Below, piece after piece: positions 45 through 11,265 of a stretch of DNA of 64,000 bases. The notes beneath the pieces were generated by a model, which was not told the DNA's origin, made no database searches, and saw only the letters and a list, made by a program, of their open reading frames with translations. The translations under genes and the position numbers were made by a program. Origin of the DNA: Blastococcus sp. HT6-4. GTDB taxonomy: Bacteria; Actinomycetota; Actinomycetes; Mycobacteriales; Geodermatophilaceae. Each line of letters begins with the position of its first letter. The first letter of the stretch is position 1. Location: contig NZ_CP155551.1 of the NCBI RefSeq assembly GCF_039679125.1, positions 2,790,001 to 2,854,000 of the forward strand. The letters run 5' to 3'.

Positions 45-695
45 TCAGCGGCGGGACTCGACCGACGATCGCCTGGTCTCGGGCCTCCTCCGGTCCGGCA
101 TCTGATTCCGCGAGAGGAGATGGGCCCCGAGGAGGACGACCGCCGCCGCGCCCACGACGACGACCACGGTCGTCATCGACCACCCTTGGGTGTCGACGCT
201 GTCGTCCACCAACTCGGCGCTCCGCTCCTCCACGAGGAACGGCTCGTCCCGCAGCGCCTCCCCGAGTGCCACCAACGCCTCGGTCCAGTTGCTCTCCACG
301 ACCTCCGGTTCCACCCGGGCGGTCACGACGTCGTCGACATCGGCCACCGGCAGCGCGGCGGAGGGATCCACCCACCACTCGTACTCGGCGTCGTCCACGC
401 CGACGGCGAACAGCATGTCCTCGGTGCCGAGTCCGGTGAGTTCCGCGGTCTCCTGGACCCAGTCGTCGCCGGCGTTGCCCTCGAAGTCGGGGACGAGGAC
501 GACGTACAGCTCCGGACCTCCCGCGTCGAGCAGCTCGGCCAGCGACTGCTCCACCTGCGCCTCCTCGTCCCCGTCCAGGACACCCGCCACGTCGCTGAGC
601 TGGTCGCTCAGCTCCAGGGGCGGCTCCGCCGAGGCCGGTCCCGCGCCGAGCAGGAGCCCGAGGGCAGTGACCAGGACGACGATGAAGCGGTACAC
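45..695 (-). CDS. Secreted TPM-domain (TLP18.3/Psb32/MOLO-1) protein
   Basis: The 216-residue product begins with a Sec signal peptide (positively charged start, hydrophobic run, cleavage after the ASA at about residue 23). A TPM-like domain follows (about 28-150): LSDVAGVLDGDEEAQVEQSLAEL is its usual opening, where a short helix precedes a beta-strand carrying LYVVLVPDF. A single C-terminal membrane segment (VVVVVGAAAVVLLGAHLL, about 178-195) and an Arg-rich tail anchor it, so the domain should face outside. TPM domains are linked to phosphatase-like or complex-repair roles; no substrate can be inferred. It stands alone, and the next gene on this strand is the broken PPTase. The family call rests on the N-terminal domain pattern. 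Confidence 0.75.
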   Translation of the reverse strand: MYRFIVVLVTALGLLLGAGPASAEPPLELSDQLSDVAGVLDGDEEAQVEQSLAELLDAGGPELYVVLVPDFEGNAGDDWVQETAELTGLGTEDMLFAVGVDDAEYEWWVDPSAALPVADVDDVVTARVEPEVVESNWTEALVALGEALRDEPFLVEERSAELVDDSVDTQGWSMTTVVVVVGAAAVVLLGAHLLSRNQMPDRRRPETRRSSVESRR

Positions 696-1032: not shown

Positions 1033-1737
1033 TCACTCGCGGAGGGGGAGGAAAGGGCGGACCTCGGGGGGTTCGGCGCCGGCGGCCGCGACGACCACCC
1101 CCAGGACGCGTCGGACCAGTGCACCATGTGCACATCGCGGTATCGGATTCGCACCCGACCGTCGGGGCCCATCGTCTCCGCCCACGCCGCCAGGTCCACC
1201 CGACCCAGGGTGTCGAGGGTGGTCGCACCGACCTCGACCAGGCACTCCTCGTGCACCGAGTGCCGGAGCGAGCACCCCCCGGCGTTCCGGTGCCGCCGGC
1301 ACCCGTCTCTGCTCGGCGGCCGACAGCGCGACCGGCATCGCCGCCAGGACGTCGCCGGACACTGCCTCGACGTCCACGGCGACGGCGTCCCACCCGGCGA
1401 CAGCAGCGACCGCCCGCCGGGTCCGGGACAGGCTCACGTGCACGCCGGGCAGGCCCCGCAGTCCCGGCTCGCCGTGCATCGCGGAGCCGCAGTCCGGGCA
1501 CCGCTGCTCCGTCCCGAGGCTCTCGATCGGCCGCTGCGTCAATGCGGCCGCGCACCACCGGGCCAGCAGGTGGGCGGCGACGTAGGCCTCCCGGTCCGCG
1601 GGGTGCCGCAGCGCTGCGGCCCGCCGCCACTCCACTGCAGTGAGCAGTGCGCCGTCGAGTGCGCGCAGCCCGTGATCCGGCCGCACCGCGCAGGCGAGCG
1701 GCCGCCGAGCGGCGGTGACCGCCACCGCCTGCGTCAC
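1033..1737 (-). pseudogene. Degenerate Sfp-type 4'-phosphopantetheinyl transferase (two frameshifts)
   Basis: Read from a GTG at 1737 (GGAGCAGG just upstream), the product shows the N-terminal half of an Sfp-type PPTase: RHPADREAYVAAHLLAR, a CPDCG element, HVSLSRTRRAVAAVA and the metal-binding VAVDVE. After EQRRVPAAPERR the homology moves to another frame at a 6-C run on the + strand (1275-1280), continues as HEECLVEVGATTLDTLGRVDLAAW, then returns to the first frame at a 5-C run (1098-1102) to finish as GVVVAAAGAEPPEVRPF. Independently of the shifts, the expected SLSH reads SLSR, and the family WxxKExxxK motif lacks both lysines (HEECLVE). This suggests real decay rather than only base-calling error. 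It is divergent from the NRPS operon whose carrier domain such an enzyme would prime. Confidence 0.7.
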
Positions 1738-2011
1738 CGGACCTGCTCCGCCGACGCGCCCGCACCCAGCGTGACCTTTCTTGCACGGGATGGAGCGCCA
1801 CGAGTTGACGGACGAGCACCCGGACTCGTCCCGCCGCCGGCGCGAATACCTGACGCAATGTCGCGCGCCGACAACACTGGGACAAACTGCTGGCACAGGT
1901 CCGAGCAGATCATTTCAGCCATCCGTTTCCGCCCCGTCCGGCTGCTATTTTCCGAGTAGCTGTGACTTTCCTCCACGAGCTTCGGGAACCGCCACGAGGA
2001 CGGAACGCGAC
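1738..2011. promoter_or_regulatory. Divergent upstream region of the NRPS operon
   Basis: About 270 bases separate the GTG of the PPTase remnant from the ATG of the NRPS. The part from about 1860 to 1990 is visibly less GC-rich than its surroundings, as expected of a promoter. A TATTTT hexamer at about 1947-1952 is a possible -10 for the rightward operon, but no convincing -35 could be assigned. The NRPS ribosome site is GAGGA about 10 bases before the ATG. Confidence 0.4.
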
Positions 2012-5000
2012 ATGAGCACACCGCGCCGAGAGTGGGACCACCTCCTGTCCGCGGTGCCCGGGTTCATGGGCGAGCAGGGCACGTCGACGGCCCCGAGGTT
2101 CCGCCTCGAGGGCAACGTCGTCGCACACCCCGGCGACCTCGGCGCCCGGTACGCCCGGTTGAGCCAGTACTTCGAGCGCACCTGCGACAGCTCCCCGTCG
2201 GCGACGGCGGTGGAGTGCGACGGCGAGCGGCTCTCCTACGCGGAGCTCGACCAACGGGCGAACCGGCTGGCCAACTACCTGATCGGGCGGGGCGTCGGCG
2301 TCGGCTCCCGGGTGGGGATCCTCCTGGACCGCTCGGTCAGCACCTACGTCACGCTGCTCGCGGTCACGAAGACGGAGGCCACCTTCGTCCCGGTCGACCC
2401 GGCTGCGCCGGCCGACCGGCTGGAGTTCATCGCCGAGGACGCCGGCCTGGCGCTGATGGTGACCACGACGTCGTTCGGGGCCACGTCCGCAGGGCTGCCG
2501 TGCCCGGCGATCCACCTCGACGAGCTGGCCGGGGAGCTCGCCGCCCAGTCGAGCCACCGCCCCGATCGCCGATCCGGCGGCGACCCGGTCTGCTACGTCA
2601 TCTACACGTCGGGGTCCAGCGGCCGGCCCAAGGGCGTGGAGATCGCCCAATCCAGCATCTGCAACTTCATCGGCATCGTGCCGATGCTGTACGGCGTCGA
2701 GCCCTCCGACCGCGTCTACCAGGGCATGACGATCGCCTTCGACTTCTCCATCGAGGAGATCTGGCCCACCTGGGCGGTCGGCGCCACCCTGGTGGCCGGC
2801 CCGACCGACGGTCGCCGGGTGGGATCGGGTCTGGCCGACTTCCTGGAGGAGCAGGAGGTCACGATGATCTACTGCGTCCCCACCGTCCTGGCGACGCTGG
2901 ACCGCCTGCTGCCGCTGATCCGCACGGTGAACGTCGGCGGTGAGGCCTGTCCACGCGAGCTGGTCGACCGCTGGGGTCCCGGACGGCGGATCCTGAACAC
3001 CTACGGCCCGACGGAGACCACCGTCACCTGCACCATGGCGGAGCTGCGGCCGGGCAAGCCGGTCACCATCGGCCGGCCGCTGCCCACCTATCGGATCAGC
3101 CTGCTGGACGAGCGGCGCGCGACCGTCGCGCCGGGCGAGGTGGGCGAGATCTGCGTGGGCGGCCCGGGCGTCGCCCGCGGTTACGTCAACCGGCCCGACC
3201 TCACCGAGGACCGCTTCATCCCCGATCCGCGGTTCCCGGGTGAGCGGATCTACCGGACCGGCGACCTGGGCAGGTTCCTCGCCGACGGGGAGCTCGAGTA
3301 CCTCGGCCGGGCCGACAGCGAGGTCAAGGTGCGCGGGCACCGCGTCGACCTCCAGGAGATCGAGAGCGTGCTCCAGGAGCACGGCCAGGTCGTCGCGGCC
3401 GTGGTCACGCTGCTGGAGTCCCAGGGGAGCGGCGGCGAGCTGGCCGGGTACGTCGTGCTCCGGGCGGGCGCCGCGGAGGACGGTCTCATCGACGAGCTGC
3501 ACGACCGGCTGGAGCAGCAGCTGCCCGACTACATGGTCCCGGCCTACCTCGACGTGGTCGGCACCATCCCGATGCTGCCCAGCGGCAAGGCCGACCGGAA
3601 GAGCCTCCCCGGCCCGCGTGGCCCGCGCCTCATGCGGAGCAGCGGGGCGTACGTCCCCCCGGCCGATGCCGTCGAGGCATGGATCGCCGGGCTGTGGGAG
3701 GAGACCCTGGAGCTGCCGCCGGGCTCGGTCTCCGTCGAGGCCGACTTCTTCGAGGCGCTGGGCGGGCACTCCCTCCTCGCGGCGACGGTCGTCTCCACCA
3801 TGCGGGAGAGCGACCTCGCCTGCGGGCTGTCGATCCTGGAGCTGTACCGGCATCCGACCGTCCGCGCTCTCGCGGGGTTCCTCGAGGACGGCGTCGACGG
3901 TGCGGCTCCCGCCGAGCGGGCCACCCGCCCGGCGGCTCCCTCGAGGCGACGGGTCGCCGTGTTCGGCTCGGCCCAGGTGGGCTGGCTCTACGCCGTCGTC
4001 GCACTGCTGCTGCTGCCGGTGACCGCGGTCTACGTGCTCAACGACGGCGTCCCCTCGTTCGCGCTCGTCGTCCAGCTCGCCCTGCTGCTGCCGCCGGCAT
4101 ACCTGGTCATCCGCTGGGTCCTGCCCCTGGTCGGCAGCCGGCTGCTCTCCCGCGGGCTCCAGCCCGGTGACCATCCCCTGTGGGGGCAGGTCCACCTGCG
4201 GGTGTGGACGGTCCAGAAGCTGATGCAGATGTCCCCGCTCAACGTCCTGGCCGGATCGCCCTTCGCGGCCACCTACCTCCGCCTCGCCGGTGCCCGGGTG
4301 GAGGACGAGAGCCACATCAACAGTGCGGACATCAGCCTGCCCGGGCACCTGAGCATCGGGCGCGGCGCGACCGTGGGCTACGGCACGCAGCTGCACCCCC
4401 ACCGCATCACCGACGGGGTGCTCTCCATCCGTCCCATCACGGTCGGCGACGGCGCGCTCGTCGGCGCCCAGTGCCTCCTCGAGTGCGGCTCGACCGTCGG
4501 CGAACGCGCCATCCTGCGGGACCAGTCCTTCCTCGAGTCCGGCGAGTCCGTCCCGGCCGGGGAGACCTGGTCGGGGTCGGCGGCCCGGCCGATGCCGGAC
4601 GACATGGACCCGGTCGTGGAGCTCATGGCCGGCTGCGACGCCGCGCCGCGCACCTGGCGCCGCGAGCTGCTGGCCGGCTTCTCGGGCGGGATCCTGCTGC
4701 TCGAGCTGATGCCCTTCCTGATCATGCTCCCGGTCGTGGCGCTCGTCTGGTGGGCACTGCTCACGTTCGGGCTGGGTGCGGGCCTGCTCGCCACCGCGCT
4801 GTCGGGGCCGCTCTTCGTGGCCACCTCCTGCGGGCTCATCCTCGGGTTCCGGCGCCTGGCCCTGCCCACGACGCCACCGGGGATCCATCACCTGCGCTCG
4901 CAGCTCGGGCTGGAGAAGTGGCTCGGCGACAAGATGCAGGAGCTGAGCCTGCTGCTGAACAACACGATGTACTCCACCCTCTACACCCCCCTGTGGCTGC

Positions 5001-6115
5001 GGGCGCTGGGGACGAAGGTCGGCAAGGGCGCCGAGGTCTCGACCATCGCCAACATCGACCCCGACCTGCTCACCCTGGAGGACGGCAGCTTCGTCGCCGA
5101 CATGGCCAGCGTCGGGAGCGCCACCTACGCCAACGGGCACGTCGCGTTCCGGCCGACCGTCATCGGCTCCCGGGCCTTCGTCGGCAACGCCGCCTTCATC
5201 CCGTCCGGCACGCATCTGGGCGACGGATCGCTGATCGGCGTCCGTACCGTTCCGCCGTCGACCCAGGTCGGAGCGGGGACGTCGTGGCTGGGCTCCCCGG
5301 CCTTCTTCCTGCCGCGACGGGAGATCTTCGACGAGTTCACCGAGGAGCAGACCTTCAGCCCCGGCCGGGCACGGGTCCGGGCGCGCTACGCGATCGAGTT
5401 CCTCCGGATCGTGCTGCCGAGTTCGCTGCTCGCGGTGGCGATGTTCGCGACCCTGTACGGCACGGCCCTGCTGGCCACGACCTACGGCGCGCTGGTCACC
5501 GTCCTCGGCGGGCCGCTGATCGCCCTCGCCTCCAGCGTCGGCGTCGTGGTGCTGGTGGCCGCGCTCAAGTGGCTCCTCGTCGGCCGGTACGAGCCGCGGG
5601 TGCGCCCGCTGTGGAGCGGCTTCGTGCGGCGCACGGAGTTCGTCACCGGCATCTACGAAGCGGCCGCCGTGCCGGCCCTGCTCACCTGGCTGACCGGCAC
5701 TCCGCTGCTCGGCCCGGCGCTGCGTCTCTACGGCACCCAGGTCGGCCGTCGCTCGCTGATCGACACCACCTACGTCACCGAGTTCGACCTCGTCCGGCTC
5801 GGCGACGACGTGGCGGTCGGCGCCGGCGCTTCGTTGCAGACCCACCTGTTCGAGGACCGCGTCATGAAGATGGGCTACGTCACCCTCCGCGACCGCGCCA
5901 GTGTCGGCGCCAAGTCCGTGGTGCTGTACGACTCCGCCGTCGAGGAGGAGGCGACCCTCGCGCCGCTGTCCCTGGTCATGAAGGGCGAGTCGCTCCCACC
6001 GGGCACCACCTGGTCGGGCATCCCGGCGGAGAAGGTCAGCCGGCCGATCGCCTGGCTGCCGGATGCGGCACCGGCGCCCGCCGGCGCCCCGGCCGGTGAG
6101 CAGGGGCACCGATGA
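2012..6115 (+). CDS. Pls/PosA-type membrane nonribosomal peptide synthetase (poly-amino-acid synthetase)
   Basis: This 1367-residue protein has an adenylation domain (about 50-540: YTSGSSGRPKG at ~198, FDFSIEE at ~243, TYGPTETT at ~330, YRTGDLGR at ~414, LPSGKADRK with its lysine at ~526), a carrier domain (GGHSLL, serine ~587), then three repeats of a membrane-helix pair followed by a left-handed beta-helix (hexapeptide) domain. The helix pairs fall near 650-705, 890-950 and 1130-1190. This A-T-(TM-C)x3 plan is that of epsilon-poly-L-lysine synthetase, whose C-terminal domains join monomers through side-chain amines without condensation or thioesterase domains. Aligning by eye to GrsA gives a specificity code DFEYNGTVTK; the acidic residue at position 239 favours a basic amino acid (inference). 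The stop overlaps the next start (ATGA). Confidence 0.9.
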   Translation: MSTPRREWDHLLSAVPGFMGEQGTSTAPRFRLEGNVVAHPGDLGARYARLSQYFERTCDSSPSATAVECDGERLSYAELDQRANRLANYLIGRGVGVGSRVGILLDRSVSTYVTLLAVTKTEATFVPVDPAAPADRLEFIAEDAGLALMVTTTSFGATSAGLPCPAIHLDELAGELAAQSSHRPDRRSGGDPVCYVIYTSGSSGRPKGVEIAQSSICNFIGIVPMLYGVEPSDRVYQGMTIAFDFSIEEIWPTWAVGATLVAGPTDGRRVGSGLADFLEEQEVTMIYCVPTVLATLDRLLPLIRTVNVGGEACPRELVDRWGPGRRILNTYGPTETTVTCTMAELRPGKPVTIGRPLPTYRISLLDERRATVAPGEVGEICVGGPGVARGYVNRPDLTEDRFIPDPRFPGERIYRTGDLGRFLADGELEYLGRADSEVKVRGHRVDLQEIESVLQEHGQVVAAVVTLLESQGSGGELAGYVVLRAGAAEDGLIDELHDRLEQQLPDYMVPAYLDVVGTIPMLPSGKADRKSLPGPRGPRLMRSSGAYVPPADAVEAWIAGLWEETLELPPGSVSVEADFFEALGGHSLLAATVVSTMRESDLACGLSILELYRHPTVRALAGFLEDGVDGAAPAERATRPAAPSRRRVAVFGSAQVGWLYAVVALLLLPVTAVYVLNDGVPSFALVVQLALLLPPAYLVIRWVLPLVGSRLLSRGLQPGDHPLWGQVHLRVWTVQKLMQMSPLNVLAGSPFAATYLRLAGARVEDESHINSADISLPGHLSIGRGATVGYGTQLHPHRITDGVLSIRPITVGDGALVGAQCLLECGSTVGERAILRDQSFLESGESVPAGETWSGSAARPMPDDMDPVVELMAGCDAAPRTWRRELLAGFSGGILLLELMPFLIMLPVVALVWWALLTFGLGAGLLATALSGPLFVATSCGLILGFRRLALPTTPPGIHHLRSQLGLEKWLGDKMQELSLLLNNTMYSTLYTPLWLRALGTKVGKGAEVSTIANIDPDLLTLEDGSFVADMASVGSATYANGHVAFRPTVIGSRAFVGNAAFIPSGTHLGDGSLIGVRTVPPSTQVGAGTSWLGSPAFFLPRREIFDEFTEEQTFSPGRARVRARYAIEFLRIVLPSSLLAVAMFATLYGTALLATTYGALVTVLGGPLIALASSVGVVVLVAALKWLLVGRYEPRVRPLWSGFVRRTEFVTGIYEAAAVPALLTWLTGTPLLGPALRLYGTQVGRRSLIDTTYVTEFDLVRLGDDVAVGAGASLQTHLFEDRVMKMGYVTLRDRASVGAKSVVLYDSAVEEEATLAPLSLVMKGESLPPGTTWSGIPAEKVSRPIAWLPDAAPAPAGAPAGEQGHR

Positions 6116-7461
6116 GCACCCCGCTGGGACGCCACAGACGCCCGGAAGCGGCGGCCCCTCCCGCGGCACCGCCCGGGACATCCGCCGGGACCGGGCCGGT
6201 CGCGCACGCCTGCGCGCCGGTCCGCTCCGGCGACGTCTCCGGAACGCCGCCCAGCACCGCGACAGGCCCGCACGGGGGCTCCCGCCCCCGCCTGGTCGGG
6301 ATCGACGCGGCCCGTGGTGTGGCGCTGCTGGGCATGATGGCGGTCCACACCATCGACGCCTACGACGACGACCGCACGCTGTCGTTGGCGTGGACGCTGT
6401 CCGCCGGGAAGGCCGCCGCGCTGTTCGCGGTCCTGGCCGGGGTCGGCGTCGCGTTCGCCAGCGGTGGTCACCGTCCCACCGGACGCAGCTGGAGGGCGGA
6501 CGCGGCCTCGCTGGCCGTGCGTGCGCTGCTCATCGGTGCCGTGGGCCTGACGCTGGGTTACGTGGTGCCCTCGGCATACGCCGCGATCATCCTCGCCTAC
6601 TACGCGCTGCTGTTCCTGTTCGCGATCCCGTTGCTGTCGCTGTCCATCCGCACGCTGGTGGTCCTGACCGGCGCCATCGCCGTGGTCGTCCCGGTGCTCA
6701 GCCATGCCGTCCGGGCGAGCACGGGTCTGTCGGGCGACGGCAGGAACCCGACGTTCACCGACCTGCTCGACGACCCGCTGGGACTGCTCGGGGAGCTCGC
6801 GCTCACCGGTGTCTACCCCGCCCTCCCGTGGCTGGCCTACCTCTGTGCCGGGATGGCCGTCGGACGCTCGCTGCTCTCGTCCCGGCGGACCGTCGGCTTC
6901 ATCGTGCTCATCGGCGCCGGGCTCGTCGTGGGCGCCCGGACGACCTCGTGGCTGCTCCTGGACGTGCTGGGCGGCCGCGCCGAGCTGGGGACCGGAGCAC
7001 GTGCGTCGATGACCGCCGACGATGTCGAGCGTGTCCTGCAGAGCGGCTGGGCCGGCACGACGCCGCCCGACACCGGCTGGTGGCTGGCGACGACGGCGCC
7101 GCACTCCAGCACCCCCCTGGACATGCTGTACACGATCGGCATCGCGTTGGTGGTGCTCGGCGTCTTCATCCTGATCGGGCGCACCACCACCGCCCTGCTG
7201 CGGCCGCTGGCCGCCGCCGGCAGCATGACGCTGACCGTCTACAGCCTGCACCTGCTGATGCTGGGCTCCGACGTCCTCCCCGGAGGCCCGGCCGAGCTGG
7301 TCATCCAGCTCGCGGTGGTCGTCGCCTTCGCGCTGGTCTGGAGCCGGTACCACCTCCGGGGGCCCCTCGAGGAGCTGGTGGCGTCGGCGACCGGCGCGGT
7401 GCGCAGGAAGGTGGCGGCGGCCGGGAGGACGGAGACCGCGGGTGACCGCAGCGGGAGCTGA
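6112..7461 (+). CDS. Multi-pass membrane protein, HGSNAT/DUF418-like
   Basis: 449 residues. After a Pro/Ala-rich cytoplasmic leader of about 60 residues comes RLVGIDAARGVALLGMMAVH, the opening motif of DUF1624/DUF418-type proteins related to heparan-alpha-glucosaminide N-acetyltransferase. About ten membrane helices follow, with the family-like end MTLTVYSLHLLML near 370-385. Members transfer acyl groups across membranes or are uncharacterised. The start overlaps the NRPS stop by four bases and its end overlaps the next gene by 20, so all three are probably translated together. Its role may be to acylate, export or protect the polymer made by the NRPS; that is inference from position only. 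Confidence 0.75.
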   Translation: MSTPLGRHRRPEAAAPPAAPPGTSAGTGPVAHACAPVRSGDVSGTPPSTATGPHGGSRPRLVGIDAARGVALLGMMAVHTIDAYDDDRTLSLAWTLSAGKAAALFAVLAGVGVAFASGGHRPTGRSWRADAASLAVRALLIGAVGLTLGYVVPSAYAAIILAYYALLFLFAIPLLSLSIRTLVVLTGAIAVVVPVLSHAVRASTGLSGDGRNPTFTDLLDDPLGLLGELALTGVYPALPWLAYLCAGMAVGRSLLSSRRTVGFIVLIGAGLVVGARTTSWLLLDVLGGRAELGTGARASMTADDVERVLQSGWAGTTPPDTGWWLATTAPHSSTPLDMLYTIGIALVVLGVFILIGRTTTALLRPLAAAGSMTLTVYSLHLLMLGSDVLPGGPAELVIQLAVVVAFALVWSRYHLRGPLEELVASATGAVRRKVAAAGRTETAGDRSGS

Positions 7462-8161
7462 TCCGACGTCGCCCGGCGATCGCCTGGCGCTGGTGTACCG
7501 GGGCCCGGCGTCGACGCCGGGCTGCCCGGAGGCGGTCGCCGCCGCCCTGGCACGGAGCCGGTGGGACCTCGACGTGCGGTTCGTCGGGCCCGGGGAGCAG
7601 CTGCCCCTCGACCCCGCGGTGCTCGCCGGTGCCGCCGTCTACGCCCAGCCCGGCGGCGGAGAGCTGCGCCGTGCCTACCGAAAGCTCCGCCGGTCCGCCG
7701 ACGCGGTCCGGGACTTCGTCCGCGCCGGCGGCGGCTACCTCGGATTCTGCCTCGGCGGATACCTCGCCGGCGAGACTCCCGGCTTCGGCCTGCTGCCCGG
7801 GGACGCGGACCGGTTCATCTCCTCCCCCGACGCAGATCCGGCGGGCGAGGGTGACCACGTGGTCACCGTGACCTGGGCCGGCCGGCGACGGCAGGTCTTC
7901 TTCGAGGACGGCCCCTGGTTCGACCTCGATCCCGCCCGGGGTCCGGCCGAGGTCGTGGCCACCTACGGCAACGGGCTGCCCGCCGCCGTGGTGGCTCCCT
8001 TCGGGCGCGGCCGGGTCGGCGTGGTGGGGCCGCACCCGGAAGCTCCACCGGACTGGTACGCCGACGCCGGGCTGCGGTTGCCCGAGGACCTGCAGGCAGA
8101 CCTCACCCAGGACCTCGTCGACCGGGTCCTGGACATCCGCCGCACGGCCCGCCGGGTCTGA
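7442..8161 (+). CDS. BPL_N-type class I glutamine amidotransferase-like protein
   Basis: 239 residues, GTG start inside the preceding gene. It resembles the BPL_N family (the amidotransferase-like fold found at the N-terminus of eukaryotic biotin ligases). The nucleophile elbow GFCLGGYL places Cys at 103, and GPHPE supplies His198 and Glu200, so the Cys-His-Glu triad looks intact. QPGGGELRRAYRKL upstream fits the oxyanion/substrate loop of the family. There is no signal peptide, so it should be cytosolic. Stand-alone members have no established reaction. As the last gene of the NRPS operon it could hydrolyse or amidate the product, by analogy with the dedicated hydrolases beside poly-lysine synthetases; this is inference. 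Confidence 0.75.
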   Translation: MTAAGADPTSPGDRLALVYRGPASTPGCPEAVAAALARSRWDLDVRFVGPGEQLPLDPAVLAGAAVYAQPGGGELRRAYRKLRRSADAVRDFVRAGGGYLGFCLGGYLAGETPGFGLLPGDADRFISSPDADPAGEGDHVVTVTWAGRRRQVFFEDGPWFDLDPARGPAEVVATYGNGLPAAVVAPFGRGRVGVVGPHPEAPPDWYADAGLRLPEDLQADLTQDLVDRVLDIRRTARRV

Positions 8162-8253: not shown

Positions 8254-9534
8254 TCAGCCGGCGTCGAGCATCCTCGCGACGGTCGGCCCCAGCCGGCCGT
8301 CCAGGGCGTGCCCGACGCCGGACGGGAACTCCGCGGTCGCGGCCACGCCACGGGCGGCGTACCAGTCCCGGCCGGCACGTGCGCCCCAGGATGCCGTCAG
8401 CGGAACGGCCGTGTCGGCGGTGCCGGTGAACCAGTGGCCGCGGACACCGGACATGTGAGCCGACGTCAGGGAGGTGCGACCCGCCGGCGGCCCCCCACCG
8501 CCGAAGACGACCCAGCCGCCGCCGAGCCGCATGAGCTCGGGGTGCCTGGGCACCAGGAAGCGGGTGATCTCCTGGGCGCCCGAGGAGAAGCCGGCGAGCC
8601 ACACCTCGGTGATCGGGTAGGCGCCGATCCCCTCCCGCTCGATCAACTCGGCGAGGAAGTCGGCGTAACCGGCGGTGTCGCCGGTGTGCCAGCACTCGCA
8701 CGACTGGTTCGGGCTCTCCACGGCCAGCGTCACCATGTTGCGCGCCCTGCTCTGGGCGACGAGTCCGGACCGTCCACCCAGTGCGTAGCTCGCGTCCGGG
8801 TTGTCGATCCCGTACTCCCCCGTGCCGTCGACGTACACCACCAGGCCCACCGGCTTGCTCGCGTCGATCCCGCCGGCGTAGCGCAGGTAGCGGCCGGTGT
8901 GGCCGTTCCCGGCTGTGAACGATGCACGGGGCTGATCGCTGTAGGACCCCCCCGAGCCGGCGCTGACGCCGGGGACCGCCGGGCCTCCCGCGGCCGCCGC
9001 CGCCGGGGTCGCCGGAGTGGCAGCCGCTACGGGGGCCGGTTCTCGGACCGGGCCGCCCCGGCTTCCGCGCCCGGCCGACTCGTGGCCCCGCCCGGCCGTC
9101 GGCGTCCCGGCTGCCGCAGGAGCCTGGCCGGTCGCGGCCACGGCGGGATCGGTGGCGACCTGATCGGTCCCCGCCGTCCTGGTCCCGGCCGCCACGGCCG
9201 CCTCGGCCGCCTCGGCCCCGGCCACCTCGGCCCCGTCCGTCCCCGCCGGGTCCGGTCCCGCCGGGTCCGTCCCGGAGGGGTCCGGTACCGCAGGAGCGGG
9301 CGGCACCCCGATGACTGTGTGCTCGGCGGGCAGGGGTGCGGGCACGGAGCCGGGGGCCGTCGCTGCGCCCTGCGCGGGGTCGGTGGCGCCCTGGCTCGAC
9401 CCGATCGCATGGTCGGGAGCCGACGCGGACACCGTCAGCCCTTCCGGCACGCAGGCGGTGGTGAGGAGCGCGATCGTGGTGGCCGCGACCAGCACGCCGG
9501 CGCGGCGGCCGACGGTGGTGAGGGATGTGCGCAC
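8254..9534 (-). CDS. Secreted lipoprotein with alpha/beta-hydrolase (esterase-like) domain
   Basis: 426 residues from a GTG at 9534, chosen because GGAGG sits about 8 bases upstream and the signal peptide then begins at once (RTSLTTVGRRAGVLVAATTIALLTTAC, lipobox LTTAC). A long low-complexity linker rich in Ala, Pro, Gly, Thr and Asp spans about 35-190, with repeats of the type DPAGPDPAGTD. The catalytic part (about 195-426) carries VGLVVYVDGTGEYG, the nucleophile elbow GFSSG, GTADTAVPL (acid residue) and GVGHALDGR (His). This matches PHB-depolymerase/feruloyl-esterase-like hydrolases. The substrate is unknown; location should be the outer face of the membrane. Confidence 0.75.
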   Translation of the reverse strand: MRTSLTTVGRRAGVLVAATTIALLTTACVPEGLTVSASAPDHAIGSSQGATDPAQGAATAPGSVPAPLPAEHTVIGVPPAPAVPDPSGTDPAGPDPAGTDGAEVAGAEAAEAAVAAGTRTAGTDQVATDPAVAATGQAPAAAGTPTAGRGHESAGRGSRGGPVREPAPVAAATPATPAAAAAGGPAVPGVSAGSGGSYSDQPRASFTAGNGHTGRYLRYAGGIDASKPVGLVVYVDGTGEYGIDNPDASYALGGRSGLVAQSRARNMVTLAVESPNQSCECWHTGDTAGYADFLAELIEREGIGAYPITEVWLAGFSSGAQEITRFLVPRHPELMRLGGGWVVFGGGGPPAGRTSLTSAHMSGVRGHWFTGTADTAVPLTASWGARAGRDWYAARGVAATAEFPSGVGHALDGRLGPTVARMLDAG

Positions 9535-9792
9535 GGGGAGTTCCTCCGGGATGCCCGACGTCAACGATGGCGACGGAGCGTTGCGGCGTGACCACTCGAT
9601 GCAAGCACGCACGGTTCGCAACGGGAAGGTCACGCCCGGCTCACAGTTGCCCCATTCGCCTCCCTCGCCTCAGCTGTCCCGCCCCCCATGCCGATGACGG
9701 GGGCTCCCGTTCGGCGAGGGCTGTACAGCCCGGTCGGGGACACTGGAGCGACCGATCGAGCCCACCGGGCCCGGCGGGGCCTCGAAGGCGGG

Positions 9793-11265
9793 ATGGGCTG
9801 GATGCGTGGGATGGGCTGGCGGGGGGCGTTCCTCGGCGTCGCGCTGACCCTGCTGGCGGCCGGCTGCACGACTCCGCAGCCCGGACCGGGACCCGGTCCC
9901 GACGCCGGCCCGGAGCCGAGCTCGAGCCCGAGTGCACCCCCGCCCGAGCCCGAGCCCGAGCCCGAGCCGTGGGCCGACCGTCCGGTCGTCGACCTCCGCT
10001 TCGCTGTGGCAGAGGACCTCGACACGGTGGTCGGCCGGGAGCGCATCCTCTTCACCCCCGACCTGCCGACGTGCGAACTGGTGTTCCGCGCGTGGCCGAA
10101 CAAGCCGGCCACCTCGGTGGCAGGCAACTCCCTGGTGGTCACCGAGGTGCGCCTGGAGGACCGGGCGGTCGGCTTCCGGGACATCGCCGCCGGGGCACCG
10201 GCCGACGCCCCGGCGGGCACGCTGGTGGAGGTCCCGCTCGGCGAGTGCGCCGCGGCCGGGGACCAGATCGAGGTCGAGCTCGACTTCCAGCTGGAGCTCG
10301 GCGAGGACACCAACGAGCGGGTCGGCACGTCCGGCACCGAGGAGGTCGCCTGGTTCGCCACGGCCTTCCCGCTCCTGGCCTGGGAGCGTGGGCGGGGATG
10401 GGACCGCGGGCCCGCGGTCCCCGTCACCGGTGAGATGGCGGTGAGCGAGGACTTCGAGCTCTCGCTCGCGGTGGCCGCCCCCTCGGGTCTCGACGTGCTG
10501 AGCACCGGCACCCCGATCGGCACCTCCGACGGCCCCGACGGGACGACGGTCCACCGGTTCACCTCCCCCGCCGTCCGCGACGTCGCGGTGTCCGTCGGCG
10601 AGTTCGACGTGGCCGAGCGGGAGATCGCGGGCGTGCGCGTGCGGGTGGCCGCCGACCAGGGGGTGGCGGCAGCGGACCCGTCGGACTGGCTGGACCAGAT
10701 CGAGGAATCGACCCGCGACCTGGTCGACCTGCTGGGCCCCTTCCCGTTCCCCGACCTGTCGGTCACGGTGCTCTCGGCCCAGACCAGTGGCATCGAGTTC
10801 CCCGGGGCCATCCAGTTCGGCGACGTCGATCCGCAGGGACGACGTGGGCTGGTGGCGCACGAACTGGCGCACATGTGGTTCTACGGCCGCGTCGGCAACG
10901 ACCAGGGTGCCCACCCGTGGATCGACGAGTCGTTCGCGACGTTCGCCCAGATGGTGTCCGGGGGCGACGATCTCCCCGACGCGCCCGTCGTGCGGGACGG
11001 CGCCCCGCCGGTGGGTGCGCCGATGTCGTACTGGACCGGGTTCCGCCGCCCGAGCAGCGTCTACTACGAGACCGTCTACATCCGCGGCGGCGCCGCCCTG
11101 GTCGCCGCCCGCGAGCAGGCCGGCCGCGACGAGTTCGACGCCGCGCTCGCCGACTACCTGCGGGAGAACGCCTACTCCCTCGCGACCCCCGAGGACGTCG
11201 AGGAGGCGTTCGCCGATCTCCCCGAGGTGCTCACCGCGCTCCGCGAGGTCGGCGCGCTGCCCTGA
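9793..11265 (+). CDS. M1-family metallopeptidase lipoprotein
   Basis: 490 residues from the ATG at 9793, which gives a short signal peptide with lipobox LLAAGC; a further in-frame ATG 105 bases upstream would bury it. An acidic Pro/Glu linker with PEPEPEPEP follows. The zinc site HELAH (356-360) is followed 18 residues later by Glu379 in WIDESFATF, exactly the HExxH-(18)-E spacing of M1 aminopeptidases (gluzincins). The GAMEN-type exopeptidase motif is represented by SGIEFPGAIQ, so aminopeptidase specificity may be altered. It is transcribed away from the esterase-like lipoprotein, with about 260 bases between. Confidence 0.85.
   Translation: MGWMRGMGWRGAFLGVALTLLAAGCTTPQPGPGPGPDAGPEPSSSPSAPPPEPEPEPEPWADRPVVDLRFAVAEDLDTVVGRERILFTPDLPTCELVFRAWPNKPATSVAGNSLVVTEVRLEDRAVGFRDIAAGAPADAPAGTLVEVPLGECAAAGDQIEVELDFQLELGEDTNERVGTSGTEEVAWFATAFPLLAWERGRGWDRGPAVPVTGEMAVSEDFELSLAVAAPSGLDVLSTGTPIGTSDGPDGTTVHRFTSPAVRDVAVSVGEFDVAEREIAGVRVRVAADQGVAAADPSDWLDQIEESTRDLVDLLGPFPFPDLSVTVLSAQTSGIEFPGAIQFGDVDPQGRRGLVAHELAHMWFYGRVGNDQGAHPWIDESFATFAQMVSGGDDLPDAPVVRDGAPPVGAPMSYWTGFRRPSSVYYETVYIRGGAALVAAREQAGRDEFDAALADYLRENAYSLATPEDVEEAFADLPEVLTALREVGALP

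What the first reader, a model, noticed from the sequence alone, without database searches (positions are those of the whole stretch)
2012..8161. Pls/PosA-type polyamino-acid synthetase in a novel-looking three-gene operon
The NRPS has the A-T-(two helices + LbH domain)x3 plan of epsilon-poly-lysine synthetase, and overlapping stops and starts tie it to an HGSNAT/DUF418-like membrane protein and a BPL_N amidotransferase-like protein with an intact Cys103-His198-Glu200 triad. I know of no described poly(amino acid) pathway with these two partners. The A-domain code read by eye (DFEYNGTVTK) has an acidic residue at the position that binds basic side chains, so a cationic homopolymer such as poly-lysine, -ornithine or -diaminobutyrate is plausible. 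The membrane protein could acylate or export the chain, and the amidotransferase-like protein could trim or amidate it.
Basis: partly seen in the sequence, partly recalled or inferred. Interest (0 to 1): 0.8.

Follow-up and report, generated by a model that had tools for sequence, protein, structure and literature searches.

The report
Polycation-making operon with two partners
A soil actinobacterium of the Blastococcus group carries a conserved gene set that probably makes, modifies and trims an antimicrobial-type chain of one basic amino acid, and two of its partner enzymes have not, as far as we could find, been described for such chains.

Summary
Observation confirmed. Window 2012-6115 encodes a complete Pls/PosA-family synthetase (TIGR02353 547.7 bits, cut-off 423.1). 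It overlaps an HGSNAT-fold membrane protein (6112-7461), which overlaps a class-I-glutaminase-fold protein (7442-8161) with invariant Cys103-His198-Glu200. The trio is conserved in 18 of 20 near-orthologous loci, with a PPTase gene and an M1 peptidase gene around it. In other actinobacteria the BPL_N partner is the more constant one: 73 of 78 homologues have a synthetase in the fetched stretch (4 of the other 5 lie at contig ends); the membrane partner was found in 49 of 78. The code DFEYNGTVTK is a diamino-acid code, closest in the PDB to PosA (ornithine). It differs from Lys-type (DAESIGTVVK) and Dab-type (DFECLSxVTK, beside dat) enzymes. The window genome has no dat over cut-off and no SbnB/OCD homologue, so ornithine is favoured over Dab and Dap. 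But a likely orthologue of the published poly-Dap synthetase falls in the same clade, so Dap stays a live rival. Best model: an isopeptide polycation, acylated by the membrane protein, trimmed by hydrolase and peptidase. Product and partner activities are untested. New variant of a known kind.

The parts
2012..6115 (+). Pls/PosA-family synthetase, 1367 aa (P0001)
   Evidence: TIGR02353 547.7 bits, cut-off 423.1; full-length relatives of 72-91% identity in the family
2156..3607 (+). Adenylation domain (residues 49-532), code DFEYNGTVTK
   Evidence: PF00501 and PF13193; code by alignment to PosA 8G95-8G98 and to 106 other rows
3680..3883 (+). Thiolation domain (residues 557-624), GGHS serine
   Evidence: PF00550 43.3 bits
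4007..6028 (+). Terminal polymerisation region (residues 666-1339): three TM blocks, hexapeptide beta-helix repeats
   Evidence: TIGR02353 profile 19-695 of 695; Hexapep; hydropathy
6112..7461 (+). HGSNAT-fold multipass membrane protein, probable transmembrane acyltransferase (P0002)
   Evidence: PF07786 48.0 bits; AlphaFold2 pLDDT 88.5; human HGSNAT Z 24.8
7442..8161 (+). BPL_N-family Cys-His-Glu protein with class I glutaminase fold, probable amide/isopeptide hydrolase (P0003)
   Evidence: PF09825 44.2 bits; AlphaFold2 pLDDT 91.2; Pdx2 Z 20.9, GGP1 Z 16.7
9688..11265 (+). M1-family metallopeptidase, lipoprotein-like by eye; HELAH-x18-E at residue 391; Pld-like partner
   Evidence: PF01433 44.4 bits; motif; homologue in 17 of 17 other trio loci
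1060..1752 (-). Divergent Sfp-type PPTase gene, a probable pseudogene in this genome (frameshift plus lost catalytic motif)
   Evidence: homologues in 17 of 17 other trio loci; one homologue scanned hits PF01648, the window frame itself hits no PPTase family
8254..9633 (-). Lipoprotein-like gene (by eye) with a GFSSG motif; conserved neighbour in Geodermatophilaceae
   Evidence: no Pfam or NCBIfam hit; motif; 17 of 17 other trio loci; gene family seen in no non-Geodermatophilaceae locus

Best explanation
The operon makes and processes a cationic isopeptide homopolymer. The A domain activates a diamino acid, most likely L-ornithine, and loads it on the T domain. The membrane-embedded three-fold terminal region polymerises it through the side-chain amine and delivers it across the membrane, as proposed for Pls/PosA. 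The HGSNAT-fold protein takes acetyl-CoA (or another acyl-CoA) from the cytosol and acylates free amines of the chain at the outer face. The BPL_N protein is a cytosolic Cys-His-Glu isopeptide or thioester hydrolase that trims, releases or detoxifies chains inside; a lipoprotein M1 aminopeptidase does the corresponding job outside, like PldII for poly-lysine. Shown here: architecture, pocket residues, predicted folds, invariant triad, synteny. Inferred: monomer, linkage, acylation, hydrolysis, location.
For: Family membership. Pocket region: best PDB match PosA, 164.8 bits, against 129.7 for Pls 7WEW and 103 for gramicidin synthase; D217, E221 and T304 are kept and S313 becomes Thr (contacts and mutants: PMC10522769). 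Calibration by neighbours: the Dab-type code DFECLS[T/V/A]VTK lies beside a dat-family transaminase in 3 of 3 loci, once also beside an aspartate kinase, as in the published pldA-dat-ask cluster (legend in PMC8117764); the Lys code DAESIGTVVK is that of the S. noursei Pls. Window genome: no dat over cut-off, no OCD/SbnB homologue. An arginine-dihydrolase-like gene (best PDB matches Alr4995 and Sll1336, which I know as AgrE/ArgZ) lies in 17 of 78 loci and would supply ornithine. Synthetase with BPL_N: 73 of 78. The invariant triad in 8 additional copies and TAT-like signals in 12 loci favour hydrolysis. HGSNAT fold. M1 peptidase gene in 9 of 10 Lys-coded loci as well.
Against: No product or activity is known. 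Code position 2 is Phe, which PMC10522769 associates with Dap/Dab enzymes, against Met for ornithine. The dihydrolase-like protein scores highest with a dimethylargininase model (200.1 bits, cut-off 300) and 140.2 bits (cut-off 450) with arginine dihydrolase, so neither is met; the window genome has only a 21.5-bit match. S. noursei carries a member of this clade and is the species of the poly-Dap producer (rival 1). The HGSNAT catalytic His position was not shown to be conserved. The membrane gene was not found in 29 of 78 stretches, some cut by contig ends. Pls works without such partners, and recombinant Pls itself esterifies the chain end (PMC9606270 passage), so a separate release enzyme is not required in general. 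Three class-sample genomes have BPL_N with no synthetase nearby.
Confidence: 0.5

Rival explanations
1. The monomer is L-2,3-diaminopropionate: the window enzyme belongs to the same clade as the published poly-Dap synthetase of Streptomyces albulus PD-1, so the operon makes beta-poly-L-Dap or a derivative.
For: NCBI places S. albulus PD-1 in S. noursei. S. noursei A-2-1 has two TIGR02353 proteins at E 1e-60: Pls, and one with code DFEYVGTVTK followed after 5 bases by BPL_N. It also has an SbnA-like and an SbnB-like gene, below the family cut-offs, separated by one gene. PMC10522769 gives Phe at position 2 for the PDAP enzyme.
Against: The published ORF is 4,338 bp, which I count as 1445 aa, but the S. 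noursei A-2-1 open frame is 1422 codons stop to stop, so orthology is not proven. At E 1e-10 an OCD-family (SbnB-like) gene is found in 8 of 17 searched carriers of the window-type synthetase and in 45 of 91 other genomes; the window genome has none (read off), so the known Dap route is missing there.
Confidence: 0.27
2. The BPL_N protein is a true glutamine amidotransferase that amidates the chain end, and the membrane protein is an exporter rather than an acyltransferase.
For: The predicted fold is closest to glutaminase subunits Pdx2 and HisH.
Against: Second copies with TAT-like signals (12 loci) would work outside the cell, away from ATP and an ammonia-accepting synthase; none of the recurrent neighbours that I scanned is such a synthase. 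The membrane protein's high-scoring structural matches are acyltransferases (HGSNAT Z 20-24.8, GWT1 Z 14); transporters follow at Z 5 and below.
Confidence: 0.12
3. The product is not a free secreted polycation: the chain is attached to a cell-envelope component, and the membrane acyltransferase and hydrolase act on that conjugate.
For: No direct evidence; only that the polymerising region and one partner are membrane proteins and that no product is known.
Against: None of the recurrent neighbours that I scanned is an envelope-biosynthesis gene (most families were not scanned). PDAP was detected in culture broth (PMC4668381).
Confidence: 0.08

Closest known systems
PosA, delta-poly-L-ornithine synthetase of Acinetobacter baumannii (PMC10522769)
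   Same: A-T-terminal-region plan; best PDB match of the pocket region; 7 of 10 code residues identical
   Different: Phe for Met218, Tyr for His260, Thr for Ser313; the sections of that paper which I read mention no such partner genes
Pls, epsilon-poly-L-lysine synthetase of Streptomyces albulus, with PldII
   Same: Synthetase family; M1 metallopeptidase gene beside it in 9 of 10 Lys-coded loci
   Different: 32-35% identity overall; code DAESIGTVVK; no BPL_N or membrane-partner homologue called in the 10 Lys-coded loci (in L102 a Lys-coded synthetase follows a window-type synthetase/BPL_N pair)
PDAP synthetase of S. albulus PD-1 (PMC4668381)
   Same: Single-module synthetase with the same kind of terminal region; Phe at code position 2 (PMC10522769); a possible orthologue in S. 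noursei lies in this clade and has the BPL_N neighbour
   Different: Orthology unproven; precursor route absent from the window genome; no BPL_N neighbour mentioned in the passages and sections read
PldA/PddA, poly-Dab synthetases (PMC8117764, PMC8225329)
   Same: Dab-type L210 is the nearest branch to the window clade in the tree; the other two Dab-type members group elsewhere
   Different: Code DFECLSxVTK and dat (once ask) neighbours, absent here
Human HGSNAT
   Same: Predicted fold of the membrane protein (Z 24.8, 294 residues, rmsd 3.5)
   Different: 14% identity; substrate unknown; catalytic His position not shown to be conserved

Membership tests
Pls/PosA homopolymer synthetases | TIGR02353 terminal domain over its curated cut-off | tested here: met
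   547.7 against 423.1 bits
Pls/PosA homopolymer synthetases | Single A and T domain, no C or TE domain | tested here: met
   Pfam scan, E up to 1
Pls/PosA homopolymer synthetases | Asp and Glu at code positions 1 and 3 | tested here: met
Pls/PosA homopolymer synthetases | Makes a homopolymer through isopeptide bonds | not testable with these tools
   needs enzyme assay or mass spectrometry
epsilon-Pls (lysine type) | Ala at code position 2 (DAESIGTVVK) | tested here: not met
   Phe, code DFEYNGTVTK
Poly-Dab synthetases | DFECLSxVTK code with dat neighbour | tested here: not met
   code differs; no dat over cut-off in the window genome
PosA (ornithine type) | Code DMEHNGTVSK | tested here: inconclusive
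   7 of 10 identical; D217, E221, T304 kept, Ser313 to Thr, Met218 to Phe
PDAP synthetase | Orthology to EXU85975.1 | tested here: inconclusive
   sequence not held; indirect case through S. noursei
PDAP synthetase | SbnB/NjxB-type enzyme in the genome | tested here: not met
   no match in the window genome
HGSNAT/DUF1624 acyltransferases | Profile over gathering score and shared fold | tested here: met
   48.0 against 22 bits; Z 24.8
HGSNAT/DUF1624 acyltransferases | Conserved catalytic His in the HGSNAT position | not tested
   His79 (90% or more) and His331 (invariant) stand out, but no residue-level structural alignment was available
BPL_N / class I glutaminase-like hydrolases | Cys-His-Glu triad, nucleophile Cys in a GxCxG-like turn | tested here: met
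   triad invariant in 44 of 44; fold
BPL_N / class I glutaminase-like hydrolases | Glutaminase or amidase activity | not testable with these tools
   needs enzyme assay

The most novel reading that the evidence does not exclude
The BPL_N protein is the dedicated chain-release and length-control hydrolase of a whole clade of polycation synthetases, a step that PMC4668381 called unknown for PDAP. The HGSNAT-fold partner N-acylates the secreted chain with cytosolic acyl-CoA, so the mature product is an N-acylated poly-ornithine (or poly-Dap), a kind of bacterial polymer for which my searches showed no description.
Probability: 0.2. Interest if true: 0.8.

Novelty: new variant of a known kind. Interest (0 to 1): 0.58.

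Why it matters
How single-module homopolymer synthetases release chains, set their length and spare the producer is not settled (PMC4668381 says the release step was unknown for PDAP). A hydrolase gene that accompanies a whole clade of them, and a membrane acyltransferase gene that often does, give two named genes with which to test this. The calibrated pocket codes (Lys, Dab, this clade) also help to guess the monomers of unstudied family members.

Tried and rejected
Lysine as monomer: rejected on the code. Dab: rejected on code, neighbours and lack of a dat over cut-off. Reading the arginine-dihydrolase-like gene as proof of ornithine: not accepted, since the window genome lacks it, its own family cut-offs are not met, and in S. 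noursei Dap may be the monomer. SbnA-family search as a Dap test: uninformative, because matches of cysteine-synthase strength appear in 15 of 15 genomes. The two-protein synthetases beside SbnA/SbnB (L193, L194, L197) were looked at as a possible Dap yardstick, but their A domain reads DIWQ[SA]TADDK and belongs to a different system. Sequence search of the BPL_N protein against the PDB found nothing at E 1. Papers on the partners: 21 papers with at least 2 of 5 terms, 12 listed; in none of the 12 do the HGSNAT or BPL_N terms occur; 18 papers, 10 listed. The library holds open-licence papers only, so absence from print is not established.
Full report
What is there. Window 2012-8161 holds three overlapping genes on the + strand: a 1367-aa Pls/PosA-family synthetase, a 449-aa membrane protein and a 239-aa BPL_N protein. 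The synthetase has A and T domains and the TIGR02353 terminal region, with no C or TE domain. Three hydrophobic blocks and hexapeptide repeats fit the three-fold model described for PosA (PMC10522769, section 13). The window lies in a 4.3-Mb genome. Its genus-mate G011 has a contig of the same length as the Blastococcus sp. TF02-09 contig of locus L070, so the genus is very probably Blastococcus, family Geodermatophilaceae (inference from contig length).

Conservation near home. The synthetase was sought in 112 genomes of the family; 24 match at E 1e-100. I fetched 26 stretches. Among the 20 with a full-length window-type synthetase (71-100% identity, window included), 20 have the membrane gene after it and 18 have the whole trio. 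The two without BPL_N (L038, L044) are second copies in genomes that also have a trio. In 17 of 17 other trio loci a divergent PPTase gene, an M1 peptidase gene, a lipoprotein-like gene and a TPM-domain gene are found around the trio. More distant family members (31-37% identity, L051-L055) show no BPL_N; one of the five has a membrane-gene homologue.

Conservation further away. A scan of named genomes with the BPL_N alignment found 147 relatives; 80 were kept, 78 distinct loci. In 73 of 78 a synthetase lies in the fetched stretch, on the same strand in 71. Of the five without, four have BPL_N near a contig end and one (L089, Nocardia) has none in its 20.7 kb. The membrane gene was found in 49 of 78, an M1 peptidase in 34, an arginine-dihydrolase-like gene in 17, two or more BPL_N copies in 20, and a TAT-like signal on one copy in 12. 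Where the next called gene is on the same strand as the synthetase (67 cases), it is BPL_N in 38, the membrane gene in 15, the dihydrolase-like gene in 13 and an M1 gene in 1; 15 of the 38 overlap by 4 bases. This retrieval was by BPL_N and so favours loci that have it. A check not biased in that way: of 394 genomes drawn across the class, 105 have a TIGR02353 match and 11 a BPL_N match. By coordinates, 7 of the 11 BPL_N genes lie in the same run of genes as a synthetase (G000, G127, G198, G252, G272, G474, G479), one is at a contig edge (G482), and three (G336, G438, G470) have no synthetase in the stretches fetched. Codes were read for only part of the 105, so the share of window-type synthetases without BPL_N in that sample is not known.

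Monomer. In 93 rows (107 aligned, 14 repeats dropped), 77 read DFE[Y/C]xGTVTK (x mostly hydrophobic, Asn in the window group), 13 are Lys-type DAESIGTV[V/I]K and 3 are DFECLS[T/V/A]VTK. The last type sits beside a dat-family transaminase in 3 of 3 loci: over the TIGR00709 cut-off in two by genome search, 324 bits for the L210 gene as called, below the cut-off of 401.6. In L210 an aspartate kinase follows, as in the published poly-L-Dab cluster (PMC8117764 legend). L210 is the nearest branch to the window clade: the node separating the clade from L210 is weak (0.233), the node joining them is 0.971; the other two Dab-type members group with two Lys-coded ones, so code and tree do not agree throughout. 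The pocket region's best PDB matches are the PosA chains. In PosA, Glu221, Thr304 and Ser313 contact the side-chain amine and Met218 affects which chain length fits (PMC10522769). The window keeps the first two and has Thr for Ser and Phe for Met. By that paper Phe goes with Dap/Dab enzymes. The window genome has no dat over cut-off: 6 of 108 genomes have one, and among carriers of a window-type synthetase these are G056 (beside its Dab-type synthetase) and G043 (which holds a window-type fragment at a contig end). It has no OCD/SbnB protein. Read off, OCD is found in 8 of 17 searched full-length carriers (an 18th, G061, was not in the sample) and in 45 of 91 other genomes, so it is not linked to the synthetase. 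With the dihydrolase-like gene in 17 distant clusters this favours ornithine, but that protein scores better with a dimethylargininase model than with the arginine-dihydrolase model and reaches neither cut-off. Against ornithine, S. albulus PD-1, source of the published poly-Dap synthetase, is now S. noursei. S. noursei A-2-1 has two family members at E 1e-60: Pls (A domain matching 7WEW over its length, 1015 bits) and a DFEYVGTVTK enzyme with BPL_N next to it. If that is the PDAP synthetase, the clade includes a proven Dap enzyme. The ORF lengths do not match exactly (4,338 bp; 1422 codons). I put ornithine at about 0.5 and Dap at about 0.3.

Partners. The BPL_N protein is predicted with high confidence (pLDDT 91.2) as a class I glutaminase fold: Pdx2 Z 20.9 (rmsd 2.7, 182 residues), plant gamma-glutamyl peptidase GGP1 Z 16.7 (rmsd 3.2, 201 residues). 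Cys103, His198 and Glu200 are invariant in 44 of 44, eight additional copies included. Copies with export signals argue for hydrolysis rather than ammonia donation. The membrane protein (pLDDT 88.5) matches human HGSNAT (Z 24.8, rmsd 3.5, 294 residues) and GWT1 (Z 14.0, rmsd 4.7, 296 residues); the next rows are at Z 5 and below, so acyl transfer across the membrane is the natural reading. His331 is invariant and His79 at 90% or more. The M1 protein at 9688-11265 has HELAH-x18-E and is a distant relative (26-35% over 145-262 residues) of the M1 peptidases beside Lys-type synthetases, which occur in 9 of 10 Lys-coded loci. PldII, coupled to pls in S. albulus, is described as a metallopeptidase on the cell exterior (PMC9223678 passages; PMC4361855 passages and section 6); that it is the M1 gene seen here is my inference from position. 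Recombinant Pls itself esterifies its chain end (PMC9606270 passage), so in Lys-type enzymes no separate release enzyme is needed; this speaks against the boldest reading of BPL_N.

Verdict. The sighting is right and more general than reported: a BPL_N partner that marks the clade and is often translationally coupled, a frequent HGSNAT-fold partner, and a Pld-like peptidase. The chemistry is unproven. Papers were seen as follows: PMC10522769 abstract and outline, parts 2-3 of the results, sections 13 and 14; PMC4668381 passages and sections 4-5; PMC4361855 passages and section 6; PMC8117764, PMC9223678, PMC8225329, PMC8973980 and PMC9606270 passages only; others as search listings. The names ArgZ/AgrE and the role of their Asn are recalled; one search shows only that the query has Asn where one of the Sll1336 chains has Ser.

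Noticed in passing
window 1060-1752 (-): The divergent PPTase gene appears dead in this genome: a frameshift at a G run and loss of the conserved catalytic motif (W..KE found in 18 of 19 related proteins), while relatives keep an intact gene.
   Followed up: partly
L193, L194, L197: Two-protein synthetases (about 1085 aa with an A domain coded DIWQ[SA]TADDK, plus 812-919 aa with T and terminal region) with SbnA and SbnB genes over cut-off nearby: possibly a split Dap-polymer system.
   Followed up: partly
L074-L135, 17 loci: Arginine-dihydrolase/dimethylargininase-like gene between or beside synthetase and BPL_N, e.g. in Micromonospora, Dactylosporangium, Prauserella and Actinomycetospora.
   Followed up: partly
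L075, L080, L108 and others: Second BPL_N copy with a TAT-like signal after the membrane gene.
   Followed up: partly
L204: Lys-coded synthetase followed by an M1 peptidase gene in an order-mate of the window; an over-cut-off TIGR02353 protein also in the Corynebacterium glutamicum control.
   Followed up: no
L217, L218, L219: Solitary BPL_N relatives with no synthetase in the fetched stretch.
   Followed up: no
window 45-695 (-): TPM-domain protein conserved next to the locus in Geodermatophilaceae.
   Followed up: no
   Followed up: no
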